The position numbers were made by a program, and so were the translations under genes. Shown here piece after piece: positions 11,412 through 63,383 of a DNA stretch of 64,000 bases. Numbering within the stretch: the stretch's first letter is position 1; each line of letters starts with the position of its first letter. The stretch comes from Opeltia flavorubescens (Eukaryota > Ascomycota > Lecanoromycetes > Teloschistales > Teloschistaceae), in the NCBI GenBank assembly GCA_000442125.1, contig KE546969.1, forward strand, positions 1,674,001 to 1,738,000, read 5' to 3'. The notes under the pieces were generated by a model. It saw only the letters and a list, made by a program, of their open reading frames with translations. It was not told the DNA's origin and ran no database searches.

Positions 11412-11930
11412 CTTTCCACAAAGCGAGCTGCAATTTGGTGATCACGAAGGAAGGCGGCAAGAGGGCTGGTAGATAGTGCCAGTTTTCTCTCATGCAAGGG
11501 TCATGCAAATATCCAAATGCGGATAGATCACTTGCGCGTGTTGAATCTCTTTGCAGATGCCTCCAAGAACGGGATGAAACCACATTTCGAACCCGTCTAC
11601 ATGAATTCCTAGAGTGTGCTCTGAATTGTACTTTGTTAGAGGTTTCCGCTTTTTCGATCATCGGTCATAGTCTTGTTCGCTTAGATGAGCAACAGAGGCT
11701 GTTCAGGCCGAGAGCTAAGCTGTAAAGTTACCTTGTACAGGCTATCAAGTTGGAATTGATGAAGGATTCAATATGATAATAAAGCAAACCATGAAGCCAT
11801 GCCGTGATGGGTCAGCTCGACGCGATGCTCGGTCTTGCGTATATGACACCTGTGAATCACTATGTCAGAAAATCTGTGTCACAGTCACACACCAACTACA
11901 TATATCTCACCGTTCCAGTAGCATCGCACC
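11412..11930. other. Intergenic, nothing recognised
   Basis: Presumed 5' region for the gene starting at 11931. Only short frames without domains. Confidence 0.4.
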
Positions 11931-13553
11931 ATGCATTGCAAATTTTTGCTCTCCTGCTGCATATATCTCCCTGTTATTTTCGCCATGCTTGTTGACGGAT
12001 ATATCGCCATCGTAGATAATGAGACGAGCAACACCGCCGCTGCTAGATCAAGAGATGATAATCAAGCTGCGACAGAAGTGCGAATCATTGCTGCGATACC
12101 TCGAAGCGGTTCAACGCTATTCATGCGAATCTTCAGAGAAGCGGCAGAATGCGCAGTGACTAGTCGGCTGGTACTGATGGGTAACCACGACGTTGGAGGA
12201 TGTTTCCGCCCAGACTACACCATATCCCAGAATCCAGAGGCTTTAGCAGTATACCGTGACGCAAAGACGGCTGGAAAGTCCATCCTCATCAGCAAAGCGG
12301 AGTTAGGCCATGAATGTTGGAAGGGCGAATGTGACTACCAGATCTTCCCTGACAAGGCTTGCGTAGGACGCACCCGACCGGCATTTTTATTTCGTGATCC
12401 ACTGAGAGTACTTGACAGCTGGAAAGCAGTAGGATGGACTGACATCGATAGTCTCATAGTTGCGTATCGACACCTGTATCGAACATGGGCCACTTGTAAA
12501 CAGTCAGCCATTGCTATTATTTATGAGGAACTGATGAACCATCCGGACCTTACTGTTAGGCGTTTGTGTCGTCATTGGGGCATTGAATTCACCCATAATC
12601 TACTCACCTTCCAACATCCATTTGGCAAATTTCTCTATAGCAGTGAACGAGAAAGACGGATATACTCCGTCGACAACCCACTAAGCCTTTTCAATACGGT
12701 CCAATCAAATCAGACCGTGAACGCAGATATCCGTAGCCACGGCCTCCTTACGACAGAAGAAAAAGAACGGATTGAACGAGCTATCGGTGGCATCTACATG
12801 GATACCTTTGAGAACGGGATCAATGCTGTCCGGGACGCTTTGTTGCAGAAGACGCATTTCGGCTTCGACCTCGACGATACGCTCCACGAATTTCGCAAAG
12901 CATCAGGAGTGGCATCAGCGTCCGTCTTCACATACCTTTCAACGCATCACAGAGCCACATTCGAAGAATTAAAGGAAAGCTATGCTGGGATTCTGGCAAG
13001 GACAACATCTGGTGCTTTTGCTGAAGGGAAATCATCGGAGGATTACCGGACGGAGCGATTTACAGCCCTTATGCAAGCTCACGATATTGAATTTACGAAA
13101 GAGACACTGCAGCATTTGCTAGGCCTGTATCACACATCTCTCCGGTCGGCTTTGACACTGAAGTCTGGGGCGCTGGAGCTCCTTCTGAAGCTCAAAAGCT
13201 TAGGCAAAAAGGTGGTCCTCGTCACTGAAGGACCAGAAGATGCGCAGAAATGGACGGTTGAGGAGTTAGGAATTGCAGACATAGTGGATATGTTGATTAC
13301 GTCTAACAAATTCGGGAGGACCAAGACGGACGGACTCTTCGACGTAGTCCTCAAAGAACTCGGAGTCGAAGCCAAAAACCTAGTCTTCATTGGCGACAAC
13401 ATGACTCGAGATGTCTTACCAGCCAGAGAAGCTGGAATTATGGCAATTCACTACAGCGAATCCGAGAACATTCGGCTTGATCTGGGAGGACTCAGGCTCA
13501 ACTCGCTGTGGAAGCTTTCGAGGCTAGTCACGAGCTCGGACAATCATATTTGA
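11931..13553 (+). CDS. Sulfotransferase-like / HAD hydrolase fusion protein
   Basis: A single exon encodes 540 residues with two domains. The N-terminal domain (about 50-300) has a P-loop of PAPS-dependent sulfotransferase type, 'IPRSGSTLFMRIF' (residues 56-68), and a downstream 'FRDPLRVLDSW' (154-164) typical of the 3'-phosphate-binding part of that fold. The C-terminal domain (about 308-530) carries all four haloacid dehalogenase motifs: 'FDLDDT' (nucleophile D313 and D315), T432 in 'LVTEG', K465 in 'GRTKTD', and 'GDNMTRD' (D489, D494). The first 22 residues are hydrophobic and could be a signal anchor. A two-step enzyme acting on one sulfated or phosphorylated metabolite (for example removing PAP or another phosphate) is inference. 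An alternative start at M20 cannot be excluded. Confidence 0.8.
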   Translation: MHCKFLLSCCIYLPVIFAMLVDGYIAIVDNETSNTAAARSRDDNQAATEVRIIAAIPRSGSTLFMRIFREAAECAVTSRLVLMGNHDVGGCFRPDYTISQNPEALAVYRDAKTAGKSILISKAELGHECWKGECDYQIFPDKACVGRTRPAFLFRDPLRVLDSWKAVGWTDIDSLIVAYRHLYRTWATCKQSAIAIIYEELMNHPDLTVRRLCRHWGIEFTHNLLTFQHPFGKFLYSSERERRIYSVDNPLSLFNTVQSNQTVNADIRSHGLLTTEEKERIERAIGGIYMDTFENGINAVRDALLQKTHFGFDLDDTLHEFRKASGVASASVFTYLSTHHRATFEELKESYAGILARTTSGAFAEGKSSEDYRTERFTALMQAHDIEFTKETLQHLLGLYHTSLRSALTLKSGALELLLKLKSLGKKVVLVTEGPEDAQKWTVEELGIADIVDMLITSNKFGRTKTDGLFDVVLKELGVEAKNLVFIGDNMTRDVLPAREAGIMAIHYSESENIRLDLGGLRLNSLWKLSRLVTSSDNHI

Positions 13554-37982: not shown

Positions 37983-39068
37983 GTGAGTGGGAGGGCAAGA
38001 GTTGTAGGTGAGAACATCAGTATCGTACGTGGGTTTTCGTTAAAAAAGTTTATGCCATATTTGGGATTATACTTTGTAAGGTTAGTTCCTACTCATTGAT
38101 TTTTGGTAGTAAGCGTGTGGTGCGAACAGGGCAGTGAGCGGTTTTGCAGAAGTCATTTGACTCTATGCAGATTGTCAGATAAGAATTCGCGTATCAATAA
38201 TAATCATCATAACCCAGGGCCATAATCCCCTGTTCGCAGCCACACACAATCATGCACAAGTCGAAAAGGTCATGAATTTATGAGACTCTTCACGTCAGGC
38301 TCTCCTTGTAGGTTTTATGCCTTGAGGCTCAAGGAATCAGGAACCTTCGGCGATTATTACAGATTCATGCAGCCCCCATCTAATCTACCGAGATCCGAGT
38401 TTGCGCCAAAAGCGCCGTCTAAGTAAGACATTGTAACGACGAGAGTAGACGTATGTAGAAGGTGTAGAAACGAGTTACCAAAAAGTATCATACCAAAATA
38501 GAAAGTCCTCGACGTCTCTTCTACGCTGGGCCTGTCGTGCCAGTCTTACGCGTTCACCGAAATTGAGACGTCGGAAAAAGCGGCGAATACGGGGTTGGGG
38601 AGCATGATCAGCGCTAGCGTCACGCTACCTCCTTGTTCCTGGCATTCTTGAGATGCATCACCACCACGTCCACCTTCTTTACATCCACATTAGCCATCTT
38701 TGATGTTGGCGTCGTCCCTCGCTATATCATCCTGAGGTCGTGACAACTTCATTCATATCGATATCGCCGGGGGAGAGTCATTCAGTCACTTCCAGCTTGT
38801 CGCTCGCTCTCCTTCCTTGATTTTCCTGGTACTCCTTAGTCGCCGCAGCGACCGACCATTTCCTCTTTGCCCCCCTCACAACCACCTTGAAAAATACAAC
38901 CATCCTCACCAAACCATATCGCCATAATATCAGCGACGATCGAGAATACTGTTCACACGATCGGTCTCACTCGTCGTACACTCGCTGGGCGTGGTCGCTT
39001 TGCCACCAGCTCCGGCGCTTAACAACCAAATCTCTCTGTAATATCCTCGTGTCTTCGGCCATATCGCA
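37983..39068. promoter_or_regulatory. Upstream region of the FLC-family gene
   Basis: About 1.1 kb without a gene, pyrimidine-rich near 38810-38920. Presumed promoter and leader. Confidence 0.4.
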
Positions 39069-41459
39069 ATGTTACCTTCCTTCTCAAGGGCGATGCTGCT
39101 CGTCCTCGCAGTCCTCTCAACTTTCTTCCATGGCTCATTGGCCATACGAAAAATCGAATCCAAATCACTGAACCCTTGCCAAGTCAACTCCAGTTTCACT
39201 GCAACCCTATTCAACGTCGTCTTCACTCCGGATAATGGAAGTCTCGCCTTTGAGGTCAAAGGAATATCTTCCATTTCAGGATATGTCAATGCCGAGATCG
39301 ATGTACTCGCCTACGGTTACAAAGCTCTTGAGCAATCCTTCAATCCATGTGACGAGGGTTTGCAGGGGATGTGCCCAATGAACACTGGCCCTATCGACAA
39401 CAAATTCAACATCGACGTGTCGAAGGACGTTGTCAACCAAATACCTGGAATCGCTTATGGAGTGCCGGATCCCGACATCGTAGTCAGGATCTACATTAAA
39501 GATACCAAAACCAACGACAGTGTAGCTTGTGTTGAAGCTGATCTCTCAAATGGCAAAACCGTGGACCAACCAGGCGTGGGATGGAGCACCGCCGTTGTCG
39601 CTGGATTGGCTTTGGTTGCGTCAGCTGTTACCTCTGGTCTAGGGCATTCAAATACTGCAGCACACGTCGCAGCCAATGCACTGTCGCTTTTTGGCTATCT
39701 CCAAGCACAAGCATTGATAGGCATGACAGCAGTGTCTCTCCCGCCGATTGTCATGTCATGGACACAAAATTTCCAATGGACAATGGGCATTATTCGAGTC
39801 GAGTTTCTGCAGGATATTTGCACATGGTATCAACGAGCGACTGGCGGTACACCTTCTACTTTATTGTCAAACCTTCAGGAAGCATCCGTGGAGATACAGA
39901 AACGATCCCTTGAATATGCTCGCAAATCATTCATCTATGGGAACAACGAAATGATTAAACGAACTAATGAGCAAGGTACCTCTACCGGAAAGACTGTTGT
40001 TGTTCGTGGCATCGAGCGCGTTGGCTTCCGAGCAAGGATCGAAAGCACCAACATCTTTCTTACCGGTGTCATCTTCTTCATGATTTTCGTGACCTTTACA
40101 GCTGCGGGCGTCGCTCTATTTAAAGCCTTCTGCGAGGGCGCAGTTCGAGCCGGCTGGTTCAAAGGGAATAAGTTCGAAGACTTTCGCAATGGCTGGAAGA
40201 TCGTTCTGAAGGGAATACTTTTTCGTCTTGTGAGTTTGGCTCGAAACGATGGAGACGAAATCTACTAATGGTACTGTTCAGGTTCTCATCGGTTATCCTC
40301 AAATGACGGTGCTCTGTCTATGGGAATTGACAAAACGTGACTCGGCTGCGGAAGTTGTTCTTGCTTTGTTTTATTTCATCTCCATGACAGGGTCCCTAGG
40401 CTGGGCCGGTTTGAAGGTTTACCGTATCGCCAAACGATCAGTCAGCATGCATAAGAATCCCGCCTACATCCTCTATTCGGACCCAACCGCACTCAACAAA
40501 TGGGGTTTCCTCTACGTCCAATTCCGCGCAACGGCCTACTACTTCATCATGCCAGTACTGTTGTATATCCTGGTGAAGGGCATCTTCATTGCATTCGCCC
40601 AAGGGAGCGGTGTTGCCCAAGCAGTGGGGTTGATCATTATTGAGGCTGGTTTCCTCATCGGTGTCAGCATTTTGCGGCCTTGGATGGACAAAAAGACTAA
40701 TGCTTTCAACATCTCTATCGCGGCGATCAATTTCTTGAATGTCATCTTTTTACTGATATTTACGGAAGTGTTCAATCAGCCTGTGAGTCGCTTAATTTCC
40801 TCATTAACTCCCACATATTGGTACTAATAGAGCATTAGGGAATCGTGACCGGTGTTGTAGGCGTCGTTTTCTTCGGCATCAATGCGGTCTTCGCTGTCGT
40901 ACTTCTTGTTATGGTTCTTTTGTCCACTGCCTGGGCTATATTCTCGAAAAACCCAGATACCCGATATCAACCGATGCGCGACGACCGCGGCTCATTCATC
41001 AAATCACAGACGCAACTCAACACCGAACTCGATGCTCTCGGCGCCACTGCTCGTGGGAATATGACCCAGGAATTCTACAAGGGCCGAGATCTGGATGATG
41101 ACGAGGATTCTTATTCGTCAGGATCGATAAAGCGAGGGCGAACCCATGATGCCGCAGGTGTACCGTTACCACCATCAACGGCGACGTCTCACAGATCGCC
41201 CTCTCGACCTCGCGAACCTCCAAGGTCTCCTATTGACCCAAATATGCCTTTCCTTCCTAGTGATGGGACCCCAAGGCACGGTACACCAACAGGTTATGGT
41301 GAGGCGCCGCGAGGTATGTACAATGGCTATAACGATAATAGCCGCAATCAAAGCTATGCCCAATTCAACGGTCCACCTGGATCGGCACAGTCACATATGG
41401 GTTACAGGAATCAGCACAACGGTAGCCCGTGGCAGCGAGGCGCCGGGTATGATCATTGA
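39069..41459 (+). CDS. FLC-family TRP-like membrane protein
   Basis: Exons are 39069-40229, 40282-40782 and 40839-41459 (760 residues). There is an N-terminal signal peptide (to about 'HGSLAIRK'). The luminal ML-like TRP N-terminal domain follows, with paired Cys ('LNPCQVNSS', 'FNPCDEGLQGMCPMN', 'VACVEADL'). The multi-helix TRP core follows, with segments such as 'VVAGLALVASAVTSGLG', 'FLTGVIFFMIFVTFTAAGVALF', 'VVLALFYFISMTGSLGW' and 'FRATAYYFIMPVLLYILV'. The cytosolic tail is Pro- and Asn-rich. This is the layout of fungal flavin-carrier (FLC) proteins, which act in the ER or endomembranes in FAD transport, calcium and wall homeostasis. Which paralogue it is cannot be told. Confidence 0.92.
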
Positions 41460-45684: not shown

Positions 45685-46640
45685 TCACCGTCTCGGATCC
45701 CCCTCAAACCTCCCCCCCATCGGTGGCGGTGGTCCAAACCCCCCCTGTCCCTGCCCAAGTCCAGGACTCATCTGCCCCCCTCCTCCTCCTCCCGGTGGCG
45801 GAAACCCCGGAAACCCCGGCGGCGGCATCCCTCCTGGTGGTGGAAACGGAGGCATGCCATTGGGTGGAAATGGCGGCGCTGGAGAACCCGCTTGGTGAGG
45901 AGGGAGAGGGGGGAAACCACCCGGTGGAGGCGGGAAGGGGGGGATGCCTCTACCTCCTGGTCCTCCTGGGCCGCCTGGTTGAGGAGGAGGGAATTGCCCT
46001 CCTCCGGGGGGGAGGTTGAAGGGGGGAGGGGGGAGGCCGCCTTTTGTGGTGAGGTAGGTTAGTGGATTGGTTGTTTTGAAATGGACGAGGGGAGGGGACG
46101 GGAAGGGGTAAGGGGAAGGGTGAGGGAAGGAAAGCATACCAGGAAATCCAAACGGCGGCGGAGGAAACCCCTGCGGTGGAGGTCCCTGCGGGTTTAACAT
46201 TGGATTCGCGCCTGCTTGGCCCTCGGCGTTGTAGGAGGAGGTGATGGAGTCGATGACTGATTGGGCTTTTTCGTGGCCGATTTCTAGTGGGGTTTGAAGT
46301 CAGCTTACATCCCTGCAGTCCATGTTTTTTTCGGGTCCTTTCTGGGAGTAGAAGAGCGTGGAGGGTAAAAGGGTGGAGATCGTAGGATGCGATTGGGTGG
46401 GGGGAAAGAGCGTACGTTGGTAGTAGTCGAGTACATTTCGCTCATGATTTCGGCCGGCGTTGTGAGCTTTTCGAACGCTCATGGAGTCGTGGGTGAGGTA
46501 GACATCGCAGTAGTCGCCTGCATCGTTAGTTTCAAGATGCGTCTCGTCGAGGATTTCTTTGGGGAGACCTACAGAAGAGTGCATTGGAAGTCAGTATTAG
46601 CAGCAACTTAAGAGTTGGAAGGGCACTTATATTTGGGCAT
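45685..46640 (-). CDS. YHC1: U1 small nuclear ribonucleoprotein C
   Basis: Minus-strand exons are 46631-46640, 46573-46578, 46416-46517, 46140-46283 and 45685-46040 (205 residues). The U1-C zinc finger reads [18 protein letters not shown], with the two Cys and the His pair of the C2H2 finger. '[37 protein letters not shown]' follows as separate conserved pieces, then a Pro/Gly-rich tail with a C-terminal '[10 protein letters not shown]'. U1-C stabilises pairing of U1 snRNA with the 5' splice site. The first two junctions are odd: the only model that gives the invariant start needs an intron beginning ATAAGT and ending AC (46579-46630, 52 nt) and a 6-nt exon. The other introns are GT-AG. Protein identity is firm; the first junctions need RNA evidence. 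Confidence 0.88.
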
Positions 46641-47033: not shown

Positions 47034-49046
47034 TCACCTGCGGAACTGAGTCCAAGCCTGTCGACCAGAGCTAGGCATAGGGCGGTAGGCCTCTGCAGCT
47101 TTAGGCTTGCGAGCTTCGGCCGGGACCACATAATCATCGTAATGCAAAGGTGGAGGCTCTCGCGGCAACGGAGGTTGTTGATGGAAAGCCACATTTCTAT
47201 AGTCATAGTTCGTAAGCGCTCGTGAATAGCTAAATGGATCAGCATAACGTCCATAATCGTCCGGGCCATAGTAGTCTCTCCGTTGCGGAGATGTAGATCG
47301 TTGTCGCTCTCCACTATGCTGAGCCTGGTTTCCAAAACGGCCACCATAAGATCTACTGTCATGAGAATTCTGAGCACGCGGCTGCATCTGCCCGGACTGT
47401 GTTGCCATGATCTTGATCTGGCCAGGGCGAGCTGGTGCAGATATCTTTGGCCGATAGAAATTAGACATTTCGTCATCACTATCTTCAATAAGGATAGGCT
47501 CCTGCTGCTCCTGCTGAGCCCTTCCTTTGATGCTGAAACCTTTCGTGGCCTTTTCTATTCGGTTCGATGGTGGATAGTAAGTCCAGGAGCTGCTCCCTCT
47601 GGGCTTTTTTGGCTGCCGGGTAGGGCACTCATTGCCCAAATGGCCTTGCCTGCCGCATTCGTAGCATTCGAAGCGGATTTTTCTATCTTGCAGATCACTT
47701 TCCCAGGGTCGCCCGGAAGTACGCCAGTGAAGCTCACAATCTTTTGTGTGATGACCTCCACGCTCGCAAAACTCGCATTTCACTCCTTTAGTCAGAGCTT
47801 TGGACGCACAGGCCGAAGCTGAGTGCCCAGGCTGGCGACACTTAGAACATGTGAGGATCTTAGGGCAATAGAACGTGCTATGAGCCCTCTTTTTATCACA
47901 GCGATCACAATTTATCCAGTCACATTCGGCATTGGTATGACCCTTCTCCATACAGACAAGACAACGAACAGGATCATTGAGATCAACTTCACTCGGCTCT
48001 TTGGTAACATAAAAGTACCGAAGCTGAAGTTCAAGATCTCGCTGATCTAGCTCTGCAAGGATCAGTGGCCGCAGAGGCCGCGACCGGGCGTTTGACGAAG
48101 GGTGACGGTGATTCGAGACGATGTCGATGGGAGCTTTAGAGTTTGCATATTCCATCATCGCGTCGCCGTCTTCGAATGACTCTTGTTCGCCCTTGGAATT
48201 CGGCTCATCCTCAGAAATCGAACCATCGAAGGCTTTTACGCCTTTGTGTCTCTCTTGATCAACGTCTGTTGATGCATCGCGAGAGTCGGTGATTTCGCCG
48301 CTTTCATGCTCATCATCTTCCAGAACATTGACGAGTACGCCGCCTTCGGACTCAGAATCACTGATGCTACCTTCTTCCGAGTCACTTGGTAGTAGAGGTG
48401 ATCGGACCGAGTCTGAATGGTGGTCTTTGAGCATTCTTTCACGTTCAATTCCACCTAAGGTGTCGATTCCTATCTTGTTCGTATCTGTAGAGACGACGTT
48501 TTCATCAGTAGTCTGCTCTGACGCAGATACCTTACCTGAATCACTACTAATAGCATGACCATTCTCAGACTTGGGTGACTTTTCTAGAACCGTGTCCGAA
48601 AATTTATTTTCGGGCCCCTCTCTGGCGATTTGGACTGAGATTTTCCTGCCGCCAAGTAATGTACCGTTAAGCTGCTGGATGGCTTTAGAAACGTCGGAAG
48701 ATCTTGCTAGATTGGCAAAGGAATAGCCGACAGGACGAGAAGTGCGTGGATTCTTGGGTATTCTGATGTCGTCAACTGGATAAGCATCCAAGTGTTCTCT
48801 CAGATCTTCTTCGGTCATACTATAGGGCGCATTGCCTATGTATAAACGACGGTCTTCCACCGGAGATCGATCGATTTGTTTATTGTTTTCTTGCTCTTCA
48901 AATTCCGGTTTGAGCTGTGAGGCGCTATCAGACTTGCGTTCAGGAACATGCTGTGCCACTTCCTGCAAGCCTGCCCTTTGAGCACTACTGGGGCGGTCTC
49001 GAAGTGAGACACGTATCTTGGCTTTTGTTCCTGTATTCCAGTCCAT
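47034..49046 (-). CDS. RRM plus five-zinc-knuckle protein, Air1/2-like
   Basis: A single exon encodes 670 residues. An RRM spans about 66-143, with RNP2 'RLYIGNAP' and an RNP1-like 'RPVGYSFANL'. A long acidic, Ser-rich linker (150-325) follows. Five CCHC knuckles come next: C362-C365-H370-C375, C380-C383-H389-C394, C400-C403-H408-C413, C424-C427-H432-C437 and C461-C464-H469-C474. The order and the lead-in 'LQLRYFYV' with 'DLNDPVRCLVC' resemble Air1/Air2, the zinc-knuckle subunit of the nuclear TRAMP polyadenylation complex. Yeast Air proteins have no RRM and are about 350 residues. The C-terminal tail is Gln/Arg/Tyr-rich and disordered. A TRAMP-like role is inference from the knuckles. Confidence 0.8.
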   Translation of the reverse strand: MDWNTGTKAKIRVSLRDRPSSAQRAGLQEVAQHVPERKSDSASQLKPEFEEQENNKQIDRSPVEDRRLYIGNAPYSMTEEDLREHLDAYPVDDIRIPKNPRTSRPVGYSFANLARSSDVSKAIQQLNGTLLGGRKISVQIAREGPENKFSDTVLEKSPKSENGHAISSDSGKVSASEQTTDENVVSTDTNKIGIDTLGGIERERMLKDHHSDSVRSPLLPSDSEEGSISDSESEGGVLVNVLEDDEHESGEITDSRDASTDVDQERHKGVKAFDGSISEDEPNSKGEQESFEDGDAMMEYANSKAPIDIVSNHRHPSSNARSRPLRPLILAELDQRDLELQLRYFYVTKEPSEVDLNDPVRCLVCMEKGHTNAECDWINCDRCDKKRAHSTFYCPKILTCSKCRQPGHSASACASKALTKGVKCEFCERGGHHTKDCELHWRTSGRPWESDLQDRKIRFECYECGRQGHLGNECPTRQPKKPRGSSSWTYYPPSNRIEKATKGFSIKGRAQQEQQEPILIEDSDDEMSNFYRPKISAPARPGQIKIMATQSGQMQPRAQNSHDSRSYGGRFGNQAQHSGERQRSTSPQRRDYYGPDDYGRYADPFSYSRALTNYDYRNVAFHQQPPLPREPPPLHYDDYVVPAEARKPKAAEAYRPMPSSGRQAWTQFRR

Positions 49047-49825
49047 TGAGGGGAGCTGCTATGAAGACTGATCGGGAGTGAAGCTGGGATATTGAACTGG
49101 ACCTGATCAGAGAGCACTGCAGGTCACAACTTGTTCTTGCCTCTGATTGAACAAGATGAAATTCATCGCTTCGTCACTACCATATCATTGCGAACGCGAC
49201 TGCCAAATTTGAACATGACAGAATTTTGATGCAGGTGCGGAAGATTCTGATGACGACGACGTGCCAGGGTCCAAGCTTCCTTCCCGAGCTAGGATCAATT
49301 CATTGGTCTATTAATTCTCCCTCCGCTTTCTCCGAAGGACATCATTCAACTGCTTTGTCTACAGAACACTCATACTGCGTGCACATTATTCATTTACTGC
49401 ATTTCCTTTATTGCTATTTGGTACGTTGCGAGAACTACCAACACTCTTTACATTCCCAGTACAGCTGGCTTGTGCAGCCCCAAGGAGCACTAAATAAAAG
49501 TCCGGTACGCCGTTGAGTATTACTGAGCCGTTCTTTTCCAGGTACGTTCCCGTCATACCGTTATACAAATGCCTTCATGTCATCACCAATAGGAGGAATC
49601 ATCAATCGTTTCCCCAAGGGTCTCTCGAAGCACCTCTGCCCTTCACCAGTTTCTCCTAGAACATCACAGGAGTTCTACTAACACTTGAACAGCTATCAAT
49701 CTACTTCCCAATATCCTGTGTCTTGAGCCAACACCGCCAAGCTGTCGTCACTCCTTGTCCCGCGTACCCTTGCTTTTGCAACAAATACAAGGCCACCAGC
49801 TCGATCACCCTCACAGAGAAGAAGG
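49047..49825. promoter_or_regulatory. Divergent intergenic region, Air-like and ORM genes
   Basis: Between divergent starts at 49046 and 49826. No ORF or RNA gene recognised. Confidence 0.4.
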
Positions 49826-59834: not shown

Positions 59835-62563
<2,729 letters not shown>

Positions 62564-63383
62564 GGTGTGTCGAGGTGGGTGTGTGAACGCGAGCTTTGCG
62601 AAAGTTGTGAAGAGGAGTAGGCTCAATAAGGATCGCCGGGGATAATGGGCGTCTTTGCATCAAGGTACGATCTGCCAGCTGAAAATTGCCGAATTAGTCA
62701 GTATCCCACGAATAAAGTTCGATCCTGGGGGATCTAACGAAGCTTGAAATACTTACAATGACTGACCTCAGCACAACACAGCTCAACAACAGATTTGAGG
62801 CTGATGACGGAGATTATGAAGCTTGGTGTGTAAATGGTATTGTTTGTCGCGGGGCCCTCAAATGCAACACGCTTTACTAGCCACGGCCATCCAATTGCAT
62901 GAAATGTCAACGACAGCTTTATGTTACTAGCACGATCATAAAAGCCAATGCCGGATAAGATTTCAATGAATTGGCGAGAGTGGTGGTGTCTTGAAAGAGT
63001 CATGGAATAGTAAAGCTTCTGTGTGTGGACGTCACAGATCTGCACTAGCGGAGATGTCAAAGCTTTTTATAGGCGATGAATCCTTCCGAAATCTATGCTT
63101 TGCATTATTAACGACTTGATGGTGCATCTTAAAACCACTATCAATTCGCATATGGCCAGTGCTGTGTCAGAAAGAAGTGTTTCAGGGGACGAGAATCATT
63201 CGAGTTCTTTCCAAGACAGCTTCAATTAATCCGCGCCAAAACAAGAAGACCACCGTCCTTCAAGCTTCAACCATCATCCAGTCCTTGATCGCAACTAAAA
63301 TACACAAGGATTCAAGCAATGTCGCATTCGCTAGACGGTCTCCAACCCACAGTTTCGATATGCCGAAGTTTCGAAACGAGTCC
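62564..63383. promoter_or_regulatory. Upstream region of SNF1
   Basis: About 0.8 kb with no gene recognised. It contains the presumed SNF1 promoter and the 3' flank of the Gag-like frame. Confidence 0.4.

What the first reader, a model, noticed from the sequence alone, without database searches (positions are those of the whole stretch)
46517..46640. Probable AT-AC intron and 6-nt microexon at the start of the U1-C gene
Seen: the start codon region (46631-46640) reads MPK plus one base. The next conserved exon begins with the last two bases of a Cys codon, then [10 protein letters not shown]. No GT-AG pair joins them in frame. An intron from ATAAGT (46630) to AC (46579), then the exon TCTTCT (46573-46578), then a GTAGGT...CAG intron (46518-46572), restores exactly MPKFFCDYC. 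Known: U2-type AT-AC introns exist, are rare and carry donors like ATAAGT; a CTAAT/CTGAC branch-like site is present. U1-C itself helps U1 choose 5' splice sites, so a non-canonical donor in its own second-to-last start codon region could be a self-sensing switch (inference).
Basis: partly seen in the sequence, partly recalled or inferred. Interest (0 to 1): 0.78.

Follow-up and report, generated by a model that had tools for sequence, protein, structure and literature searches.

The report
AT-AC intron and microexon in U1-C
In what looks like a fungus, the gene for a protein that helps cells find where introns begin appears itself to start with an intron of a very rare kind, followed by a coding exon only six letters long; both features are known elsewhere, and neither has been checked on RNA here.

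Summary
On the minus strand, exon 1 (46640-46631), an AT-AC intron (46630-46579, ATAAGT...GCAC), a 6-nt exon TCTTCT (46578-46573) and a GT-AG intron (46572-46518) restore MPKFFCDYC, the conserved U1-C start. Of 982 enumerated one- and two-intron models, 59 were in frame, none of these was purely GT-AG, and one gave MPKFFCDYC. Comparable solutions appeared in 107 of 20,000 shuffles, and in 2 of 20,000 with signal filters that I set after seeing the site. Signals are U2-type, not U12-type. No RNA, organism name or related fungal locus was available, so splicing in vivo and conservation are untested. The main rival, one GC-AG intron giving MPKYKCDYC, scores 71.6 against 77.8 bits on Pfam zf-U1 and has an un-fungal donor. 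My bold reading: the A...C terminal pair steers the donor away from two nearby AG acceptors and so keeps the microexon in. Best filed as a new member of known kinds.

The parts
46631..46640 (-). Exon 1 coding part, ATGCCCAAAT (MPK plus first base of codon 4)
   Evidence: the one MPK among 5 M[PTAS][KR] starts found between 54500 and 46517
46579..46630 (-). Intron 1, AT-AC termini, 52 nt, donor ATAAGTGC, acceptor ATGCAC; stop after 10 codons if retained
   Evidence: UAAGUG can pair with the (recalled) U1 5' end
46590..46594 (-). Probable branch site CTGAC, its A followed by 12 nt of intron (a CTAAT starts 6 nt upstream)
   Evidence: the other three introns of the gene carry CTAAC, CTGAC, CTAAC
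46573..46578 (-). 6-nt microexon TCTTCT (completes F4, codes F5, gives first base of C6)
   Evidence: Pfam bits fall from 77.8 to 64.5 without it
46518..46572 (-). Intron 2, GT-AG, 55 nt, donor GTAGGT, branch CTAAC, acceptor ATGCAG
46569..46570 (-). AG of an acceptor-like site (TCTTCTGTAG) 10 nt past the AC; with the AT donor it would be in frame but break the zinc finger
   Evidence: sequence; outcome; Pfam 58.7 bits
46416..46517 (-). Exon 3, conserved zinc-finger exon (last two bases of C6, [10 protein letters not shown]...)
46284..46415 (-). Intron 3, GT-AG, donor GTACGC, branch CTGAC, 132 nt
46140..46283 (-). Exon 4 of U1-C
46041..46139 (-). Intron 4, GT-AG, donor GTATGC, branch CTAAC, 99 nt
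45685..46040 (-). Exon 5 of U1-C to the stop codon; Pro/Gly-rich part; whole product 205 aa

Best explanation
The gene is a U1-C gene (U1 small nuclear ribonucleoprotein C), probably of a filamentous fungus. Its coding sequence begins with a 10-nt exon, then a U2-type AT-AC intron, then a 6-nt microexon, then a normal GT-AG intron. Shown by sequence: the letters, the frame, U2-like donor and branch signals, and that this is the one enumerated model that restores MPKFFCDYC. Inferred: the major spliceosome recognises AUAAGUG by pairing UAAGUG with the U1 5' end, the branch is CTGAC, and the A at the first intron position is accommodated by the C at the last one (the known A-C substitute for the G-G terminal pair), so the ends look like a compensated pair of substitutions rather than a sequencing error. 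Most likely the intron is spliced constitutively and the microexon always included; I have no evidence of regulation.
For: Enumeration: 1 of 982 models gives MPKFFCDYC; none of 59 in-frame models is pure GT-AG. Shuffles: 107 of 20,000 unfiltered, 2 of 20,000 filtered. Pfam zf-U1 on N-terminal fragments: 77.8 bits with FF, 71.6 with YK, 64.5 without the microexon, 62.7 without the start. Solved U1-C chains begin MPKFYC and MTRYYC (I recall these as human and yeast). Donor 6 of 6 to ATAAGT but 3 of 9 to the U12 donor; best U12 branch match 5 of 9, reached by 1987 of 2000 shuffles (U12 strings recalled). Branch motifs and spacing like those of the gene's other three introns. In S. cerevisiae the G-G terminal pair can be replaced only by A-C (PMC8283771, passage). 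AT-AC is 0.019% of annotated introns in 130 fungi (PMC7072748, passages), so rare but real; one was confirmed by Sanger sequencing in Ganoderma lingzhi (PMC11590231, passages).
Against: No cDNA or RNA-seq. No related locus found, so conservation is untested. A GC-AG intron is also in frame. Predicted pairing of the AT donor with U1 (-3.6 kcal/mol) is weaker than for introns 2 (-5.1) and 4 (-4.2). The shuffle filters were set after the real site was known.
Confidence: 0.85

Rival explanations
1. One GC-AG intron, 46624-46518 (107 nt), joins ATGCCCAAATATAAGT to the conserved exon and gives MPKYKCDYC; there is no microexon and no AT-AC intron.
For: In frame, 205 aa, one intron instead of two. Y-x-C-x2-C is a common zinc-finger start (recalled). 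GC-AG is about 1% of fungal introns, far commoner than AT-AC.
Against: Donor GCCCTT lacks the AAGT that often follows GC in 20 Fusarium graminearum GC donors (PMC3577648, section 10); in the duplex calculation the U1 end pairs with UAAGUG, the AT register, not across the GC site. Pfam 71.6 against 77.8 bits. K at position 5, where the solved U1-C chains have Y.
Confidence: 0.07
2. The AT donor pairs with an AG acceptor: 46569 (in frame, 220 aa, 15 residues longer) or 46518 (microexon skipped, MPKCDYC, 203 aa), as the main form or as minor isoforms.
For: Both are in frame. 46569 is preceded by pyrimidines. AT-AG introns were counted at least as often as AT-AC in Ganoderma (21 and 13).
Against: In yeast only A-C replaces the G-G terminal pair. 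Pfam falls to 58.7 and 64.5 bits; the first form loses the C-x2-C spacing, the second the two aromatic residues.
Confidence: 0.03
3. The genome sequence has errors at the intron ends, and the true intron is GT-AG.
For: No reads were available to check the terminal bases.
Against: Two independent errors would be needed, at exactly the two terminal bases, and together they would have to make the known functional A-C pair.
Confidence: 0.03
4. Self-sensing (not exclusive of the best explanation): recognition of the AT donor depends on U1-C level, so that intron 1 splicing reports U1-C activity.
For: Retention stops translation after 10 codons; U1-C contacts the backbone at -2 to +3 and favours most mismatched donors tested (PMC4383343).
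Confidence: 0.05

Closest known systems
U2-type (type II) AT-AC introns
   Same: ATAAGT donor, AC end, CTRAY branch, no U12 signals
   Different: Sits in the gene of a U1 snRNP protein and abuts a 6-nt microexon; splicing not shown
Fungal microexons (Trichoderma virens Xlr2; earlier cases cited in that paper)
   Same: Very short coding exon between introns
   Different: Inclusion of the Xlr2 microexon depends on glucose (PMC11121469, abstract and passages); here there is no evidence on regulation, and one flanking intron is AT-AC
U1C / U1-70K cross-regulation in human cells
   Same: Splicing-based control inside the U1 snRNP (PMC3798272, passages)
   Different: Acts on U1-70K through an alternative 3' splice site, not on the U1-C gene
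U12-type AT-AC introns
   Same: AT-AC ends
   Different: U12 donor and branch not found here

Membership tests
U2-type AT-AC intron | AT at the 5' end and AC at the 3' end of a frame-restoring intron | tested here: met
U2-type AT-AC intron | U1-complementary donor (ATAAGT) and U2-type branch near the end | tested here: met
   U1 5' end recalled, the host's own U1 not seen
U2-type AT-AC intron | Removed from mRNA by the major spliceosome | not testable with these tools
   no RNA data
U12-type AT-AC intron | Donor ATATCCTT and branch TTCCTTAAC (strings recalled), 11-13 nt from the end (PMC3584512, passage) | tested here: not met
   3 of 9 and 5 of 9 matches; branch match at chance level
Microexon | Very short internal exon between two introns | tested here: met
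   6 nt in the best model
Microexon | Included in mRNA | not testable with these tools
   no RNA data
U1-C | zf-U1 domain at the N-terminus over the curated cut-off (22 bits) | tested here: met
   75.6 bits for the 205-aa product
U1-C | Cys6, Cys9, His24, His30 (ligand roles recalled) shared with two solved U1-C chains | tested here: met
   invariant columns in a 3-sequence alignment
GC-AG intron (rival) | AAGT-like sequence after the GC donor | tested here: not met
   donor GCCCTT against PMC3577648 section 10
Conserved AT-AC intron of fungal U1-C | Same ATAAGT/AC pair in related species | not testable with these tools
   no fungal relative found in viral contigs or genome contigs

The most novel reading that the evidence does not exclude
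The A...C terminal pair works as a matching key for the microexon: because an A at the first intron base accepts C rather than G at the last, the donor cannot easily join the AG at 46569 (whose pyrimidine tract is the microexon itself) or the AG at 46518, so the six bases coding the two aromatic residues are always kept. The rare termini would then be selected, not drifted into, in the gene of a protein that itself tunes donor choice. With GT-AG ends one would expect skipping or misplaced splicing. AT-AG introns reported in Ganoderma speak against a strict version.
Probability: 0.13. Interest if true: 0.75.

Novelty: new member of a known kind. Interest (0 to 1): 0.42.

Why it matters
AT-AC introns are about one in five thousand annotated fungal introns (0.019%), and missed AT-AC sites are known to truncate gene models (Ganoderma example), so the N-terminus of this protein, essential in yeast (PMC3798272, passage), could easily be misannotated. 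If the termini are conserved, the gene would be a natural test of whether non-canonical intron ends can enforce splice-site pairing around a microexon.

Tried and rejected
U12-type intron: donor and branch do not fit. Alternative first exon: no unsplit MPKFF-like start between 54500 and 46517; of 41 in-frame single GT-AG joins from other ATGs none gives MPKFF, and the nearest (MTKCDY, from 47476) has a poor donor, a long intron and lies inside the upstream ORF. Related loci: viral contigs twice (1 and 80 stretches matched a pattern, none confirmed) and genome contigs once (51 stretches, 1 confirmed), the one locus L001 being a chance NVLDYYQQ match inside a bacterial ORF that I read by eye as glycosyltransferase-like. 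Rfam at gathering scores found nothing in the window. Zn-finger family search over L001's genome: no match.

bear on AT-AC introns, microexons or U1-C in fungi. By the titles and abstract openings shown (25 of 81, 12 of 16), none is about an AT-AC intron or microexon in a U1-C gene. The library lacks most subscription papers, and supplementary files could not be read, so the Fusarium and Trichoderma lists of AT-AC introns were not checked for this gene.

Duplex energies: for the GC and GT candidate sites the program paired the same UAAGUG letters, and for intron 3 its -0.9 lies outside the splice register, so those numbers do not rate these sites.

Full report
What was checked. The gene on the minus strand, 46640 to 45685, encodes a 205-residue product whose first 38 residues match Pfam zf-U1 at 75.6 bits, cut-off 22, and whose best solved relatives are chains named U1 small nuclear ribonucleoprotein C. 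I take it to be U1-C. The host looks like a filamentous ascomycete from short introns, branch motifs and the protein; that is inference and recall, since no genome is held for the window and I ran no taxonomic test.

Is it more than chance? I enumerated introns of five terminus classes (GT-AG, GC-AG, AT-AC, AT-AG, GT-AC; 30 nt or more) from the ATG at 46640: 139 introns, 982 one- and two-intron models, 59 in frame to the conserved exon. None of the 59 was purely GT-AG, and one gave MPKFFCDYC. Shuffling the 114 nt between MPK and the conserved exon (last CAG kept; GT-AG, GC-AG and AT-AC allowed) gave a solution MPK[FYW][FYLW]CDYC in 107 of 20,000 shuffles on termini alone and in 2 of 20,000 with donor and branch filters; with filters and GT-AG alone, 1 of 20,000. 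The filters were mine and were set knowing the real site. The bare motif set ATAAGT, CTRAY, YAC occurs twice in the window, so the frame, not the motif, carries the weight.

Signals. Intron 1: donor ATAAGTGC; CTAAT and CTGAC with 18 and 12 nt of intron after their A; acceptor GCAC. Introns 2 to 4 carry GTAGGT, GTACGC and GTATGC donors, and CTAAC, CTGAC and CTAAC with 8, 16 and 18 nt after the A. A mechanical scan of ORF pairs printed 11 further GT-AG candidates (two share a donor), such as two in the TRP-channel gene; 6 have 9-13 nt after the branch A. A CTRAY motif was required and U1-like donors were favoured by that script, so it shows only that such introns fit, and I did not verify them one by one. 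The U12 comparison fails at donor and branch. Best pairing with a recalled U1 5' end is -3.6 kcal/mol at the AT site, -5.1 at intron 2 and -4.2 at intron 4.

Protein test of the rivals. zf-U1 bits on N-terminal fragments: 77.8 for MPKFFC, 71.6 for the GC-AG product MPKYKC, 64.5 for the microexon-skipped form, 58.7 for AT-AG 46569, 62.7 with the start left out. Six bits alone would not settle the GC-AG rival; its donor weighs more. In 20 Fusarium GC-AG introns AAGT occurs more frequently after the GC (PMC3577648, section 10 read), and here GC is followed by CCTT.

Mechanism. Shown in silico: retention of intron 1 stops after 10 codons, retention of intron 2 alone after 18; AT-to-AG joins at 46569 and 46518 are in frame (220 and 203 aa) but damage the finger. 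From passages: in S. cerevisiae the first-last G-G pair can be replaced only by A-C (PMC8283771). Inferred: a compensated change of both ends, spliced by the major spliceosome. The self-sensing reading would be positive feedback and has no support. The lock reading in the section on the most novel reading follows from geometry: the AG at 46569 is preceded by the pyrimidines of the microexon itself, and the A-C rule would keep the AT donor from using it. Against a strict rule, AT-AG introns were counted in Ganoderma (21, with 13 AT-AC; PMC11590231).

How rare. AT-AC is 0.019% of annotated introns in 130 fungi (PMC7072748). RNA-seq junction sets report more: 69 of 14,305 (0.5%) in Trichoderma longibrachiatum (PMC4324775) and 0.09-5.19% across several fungal pathogens (PMC6176087). 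I did not weigh how many of those junctions are mapping artefacts. That last paper says minor-spliceosome components were not identified in the fungi it studied.

Limits. No RNA, no reads, no related fungal locus. Papers were seen as search listings or passages, and one section in full; supplementary files were not readable. That I found no earlier report for U1-C rests on the searches named in Tried and rejected.

Noticed in passing
47037-49058, minus strand: The next ORF upstream (674 aa) holds an RRM and CCHC zinc knuckles; residues 365-479 match yeast-type Air2 (2lli, E 1.3e-11). The combination looked unusual to me; not compared with other genomes.
   Followed up: partly
46569-46518, minus strand: Intron 2 without its first four bases (51 nt, 17 codons) is open in the U1-C frame, so an AT-AG join at 46569 would read on into U1-C without a second intron.
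   Followed up: partly
39042-41456, plus strand: TRP-like channel gene (TRP_N plus TRP domains) with two candidate GT-AG introns.
   Followed up: no
59838-61208, minus strand: AdenylateSensor domain of an SNF1-like kinase; an ORF upstream (61991-62659) had no PDB match at E up to 1e-30.
   Followed up: no
11922-13550, plus strand: One ORF matches both a sulfotransferase-family stretch (157-224) and a HAD-type hydrolase (314-505).
   Followed up: no
control genomes: The zf-U1 family search reported a match over the cut-off in 1 of 14 control genomes, Escherichia coli; unexplained.
   Followed up: no
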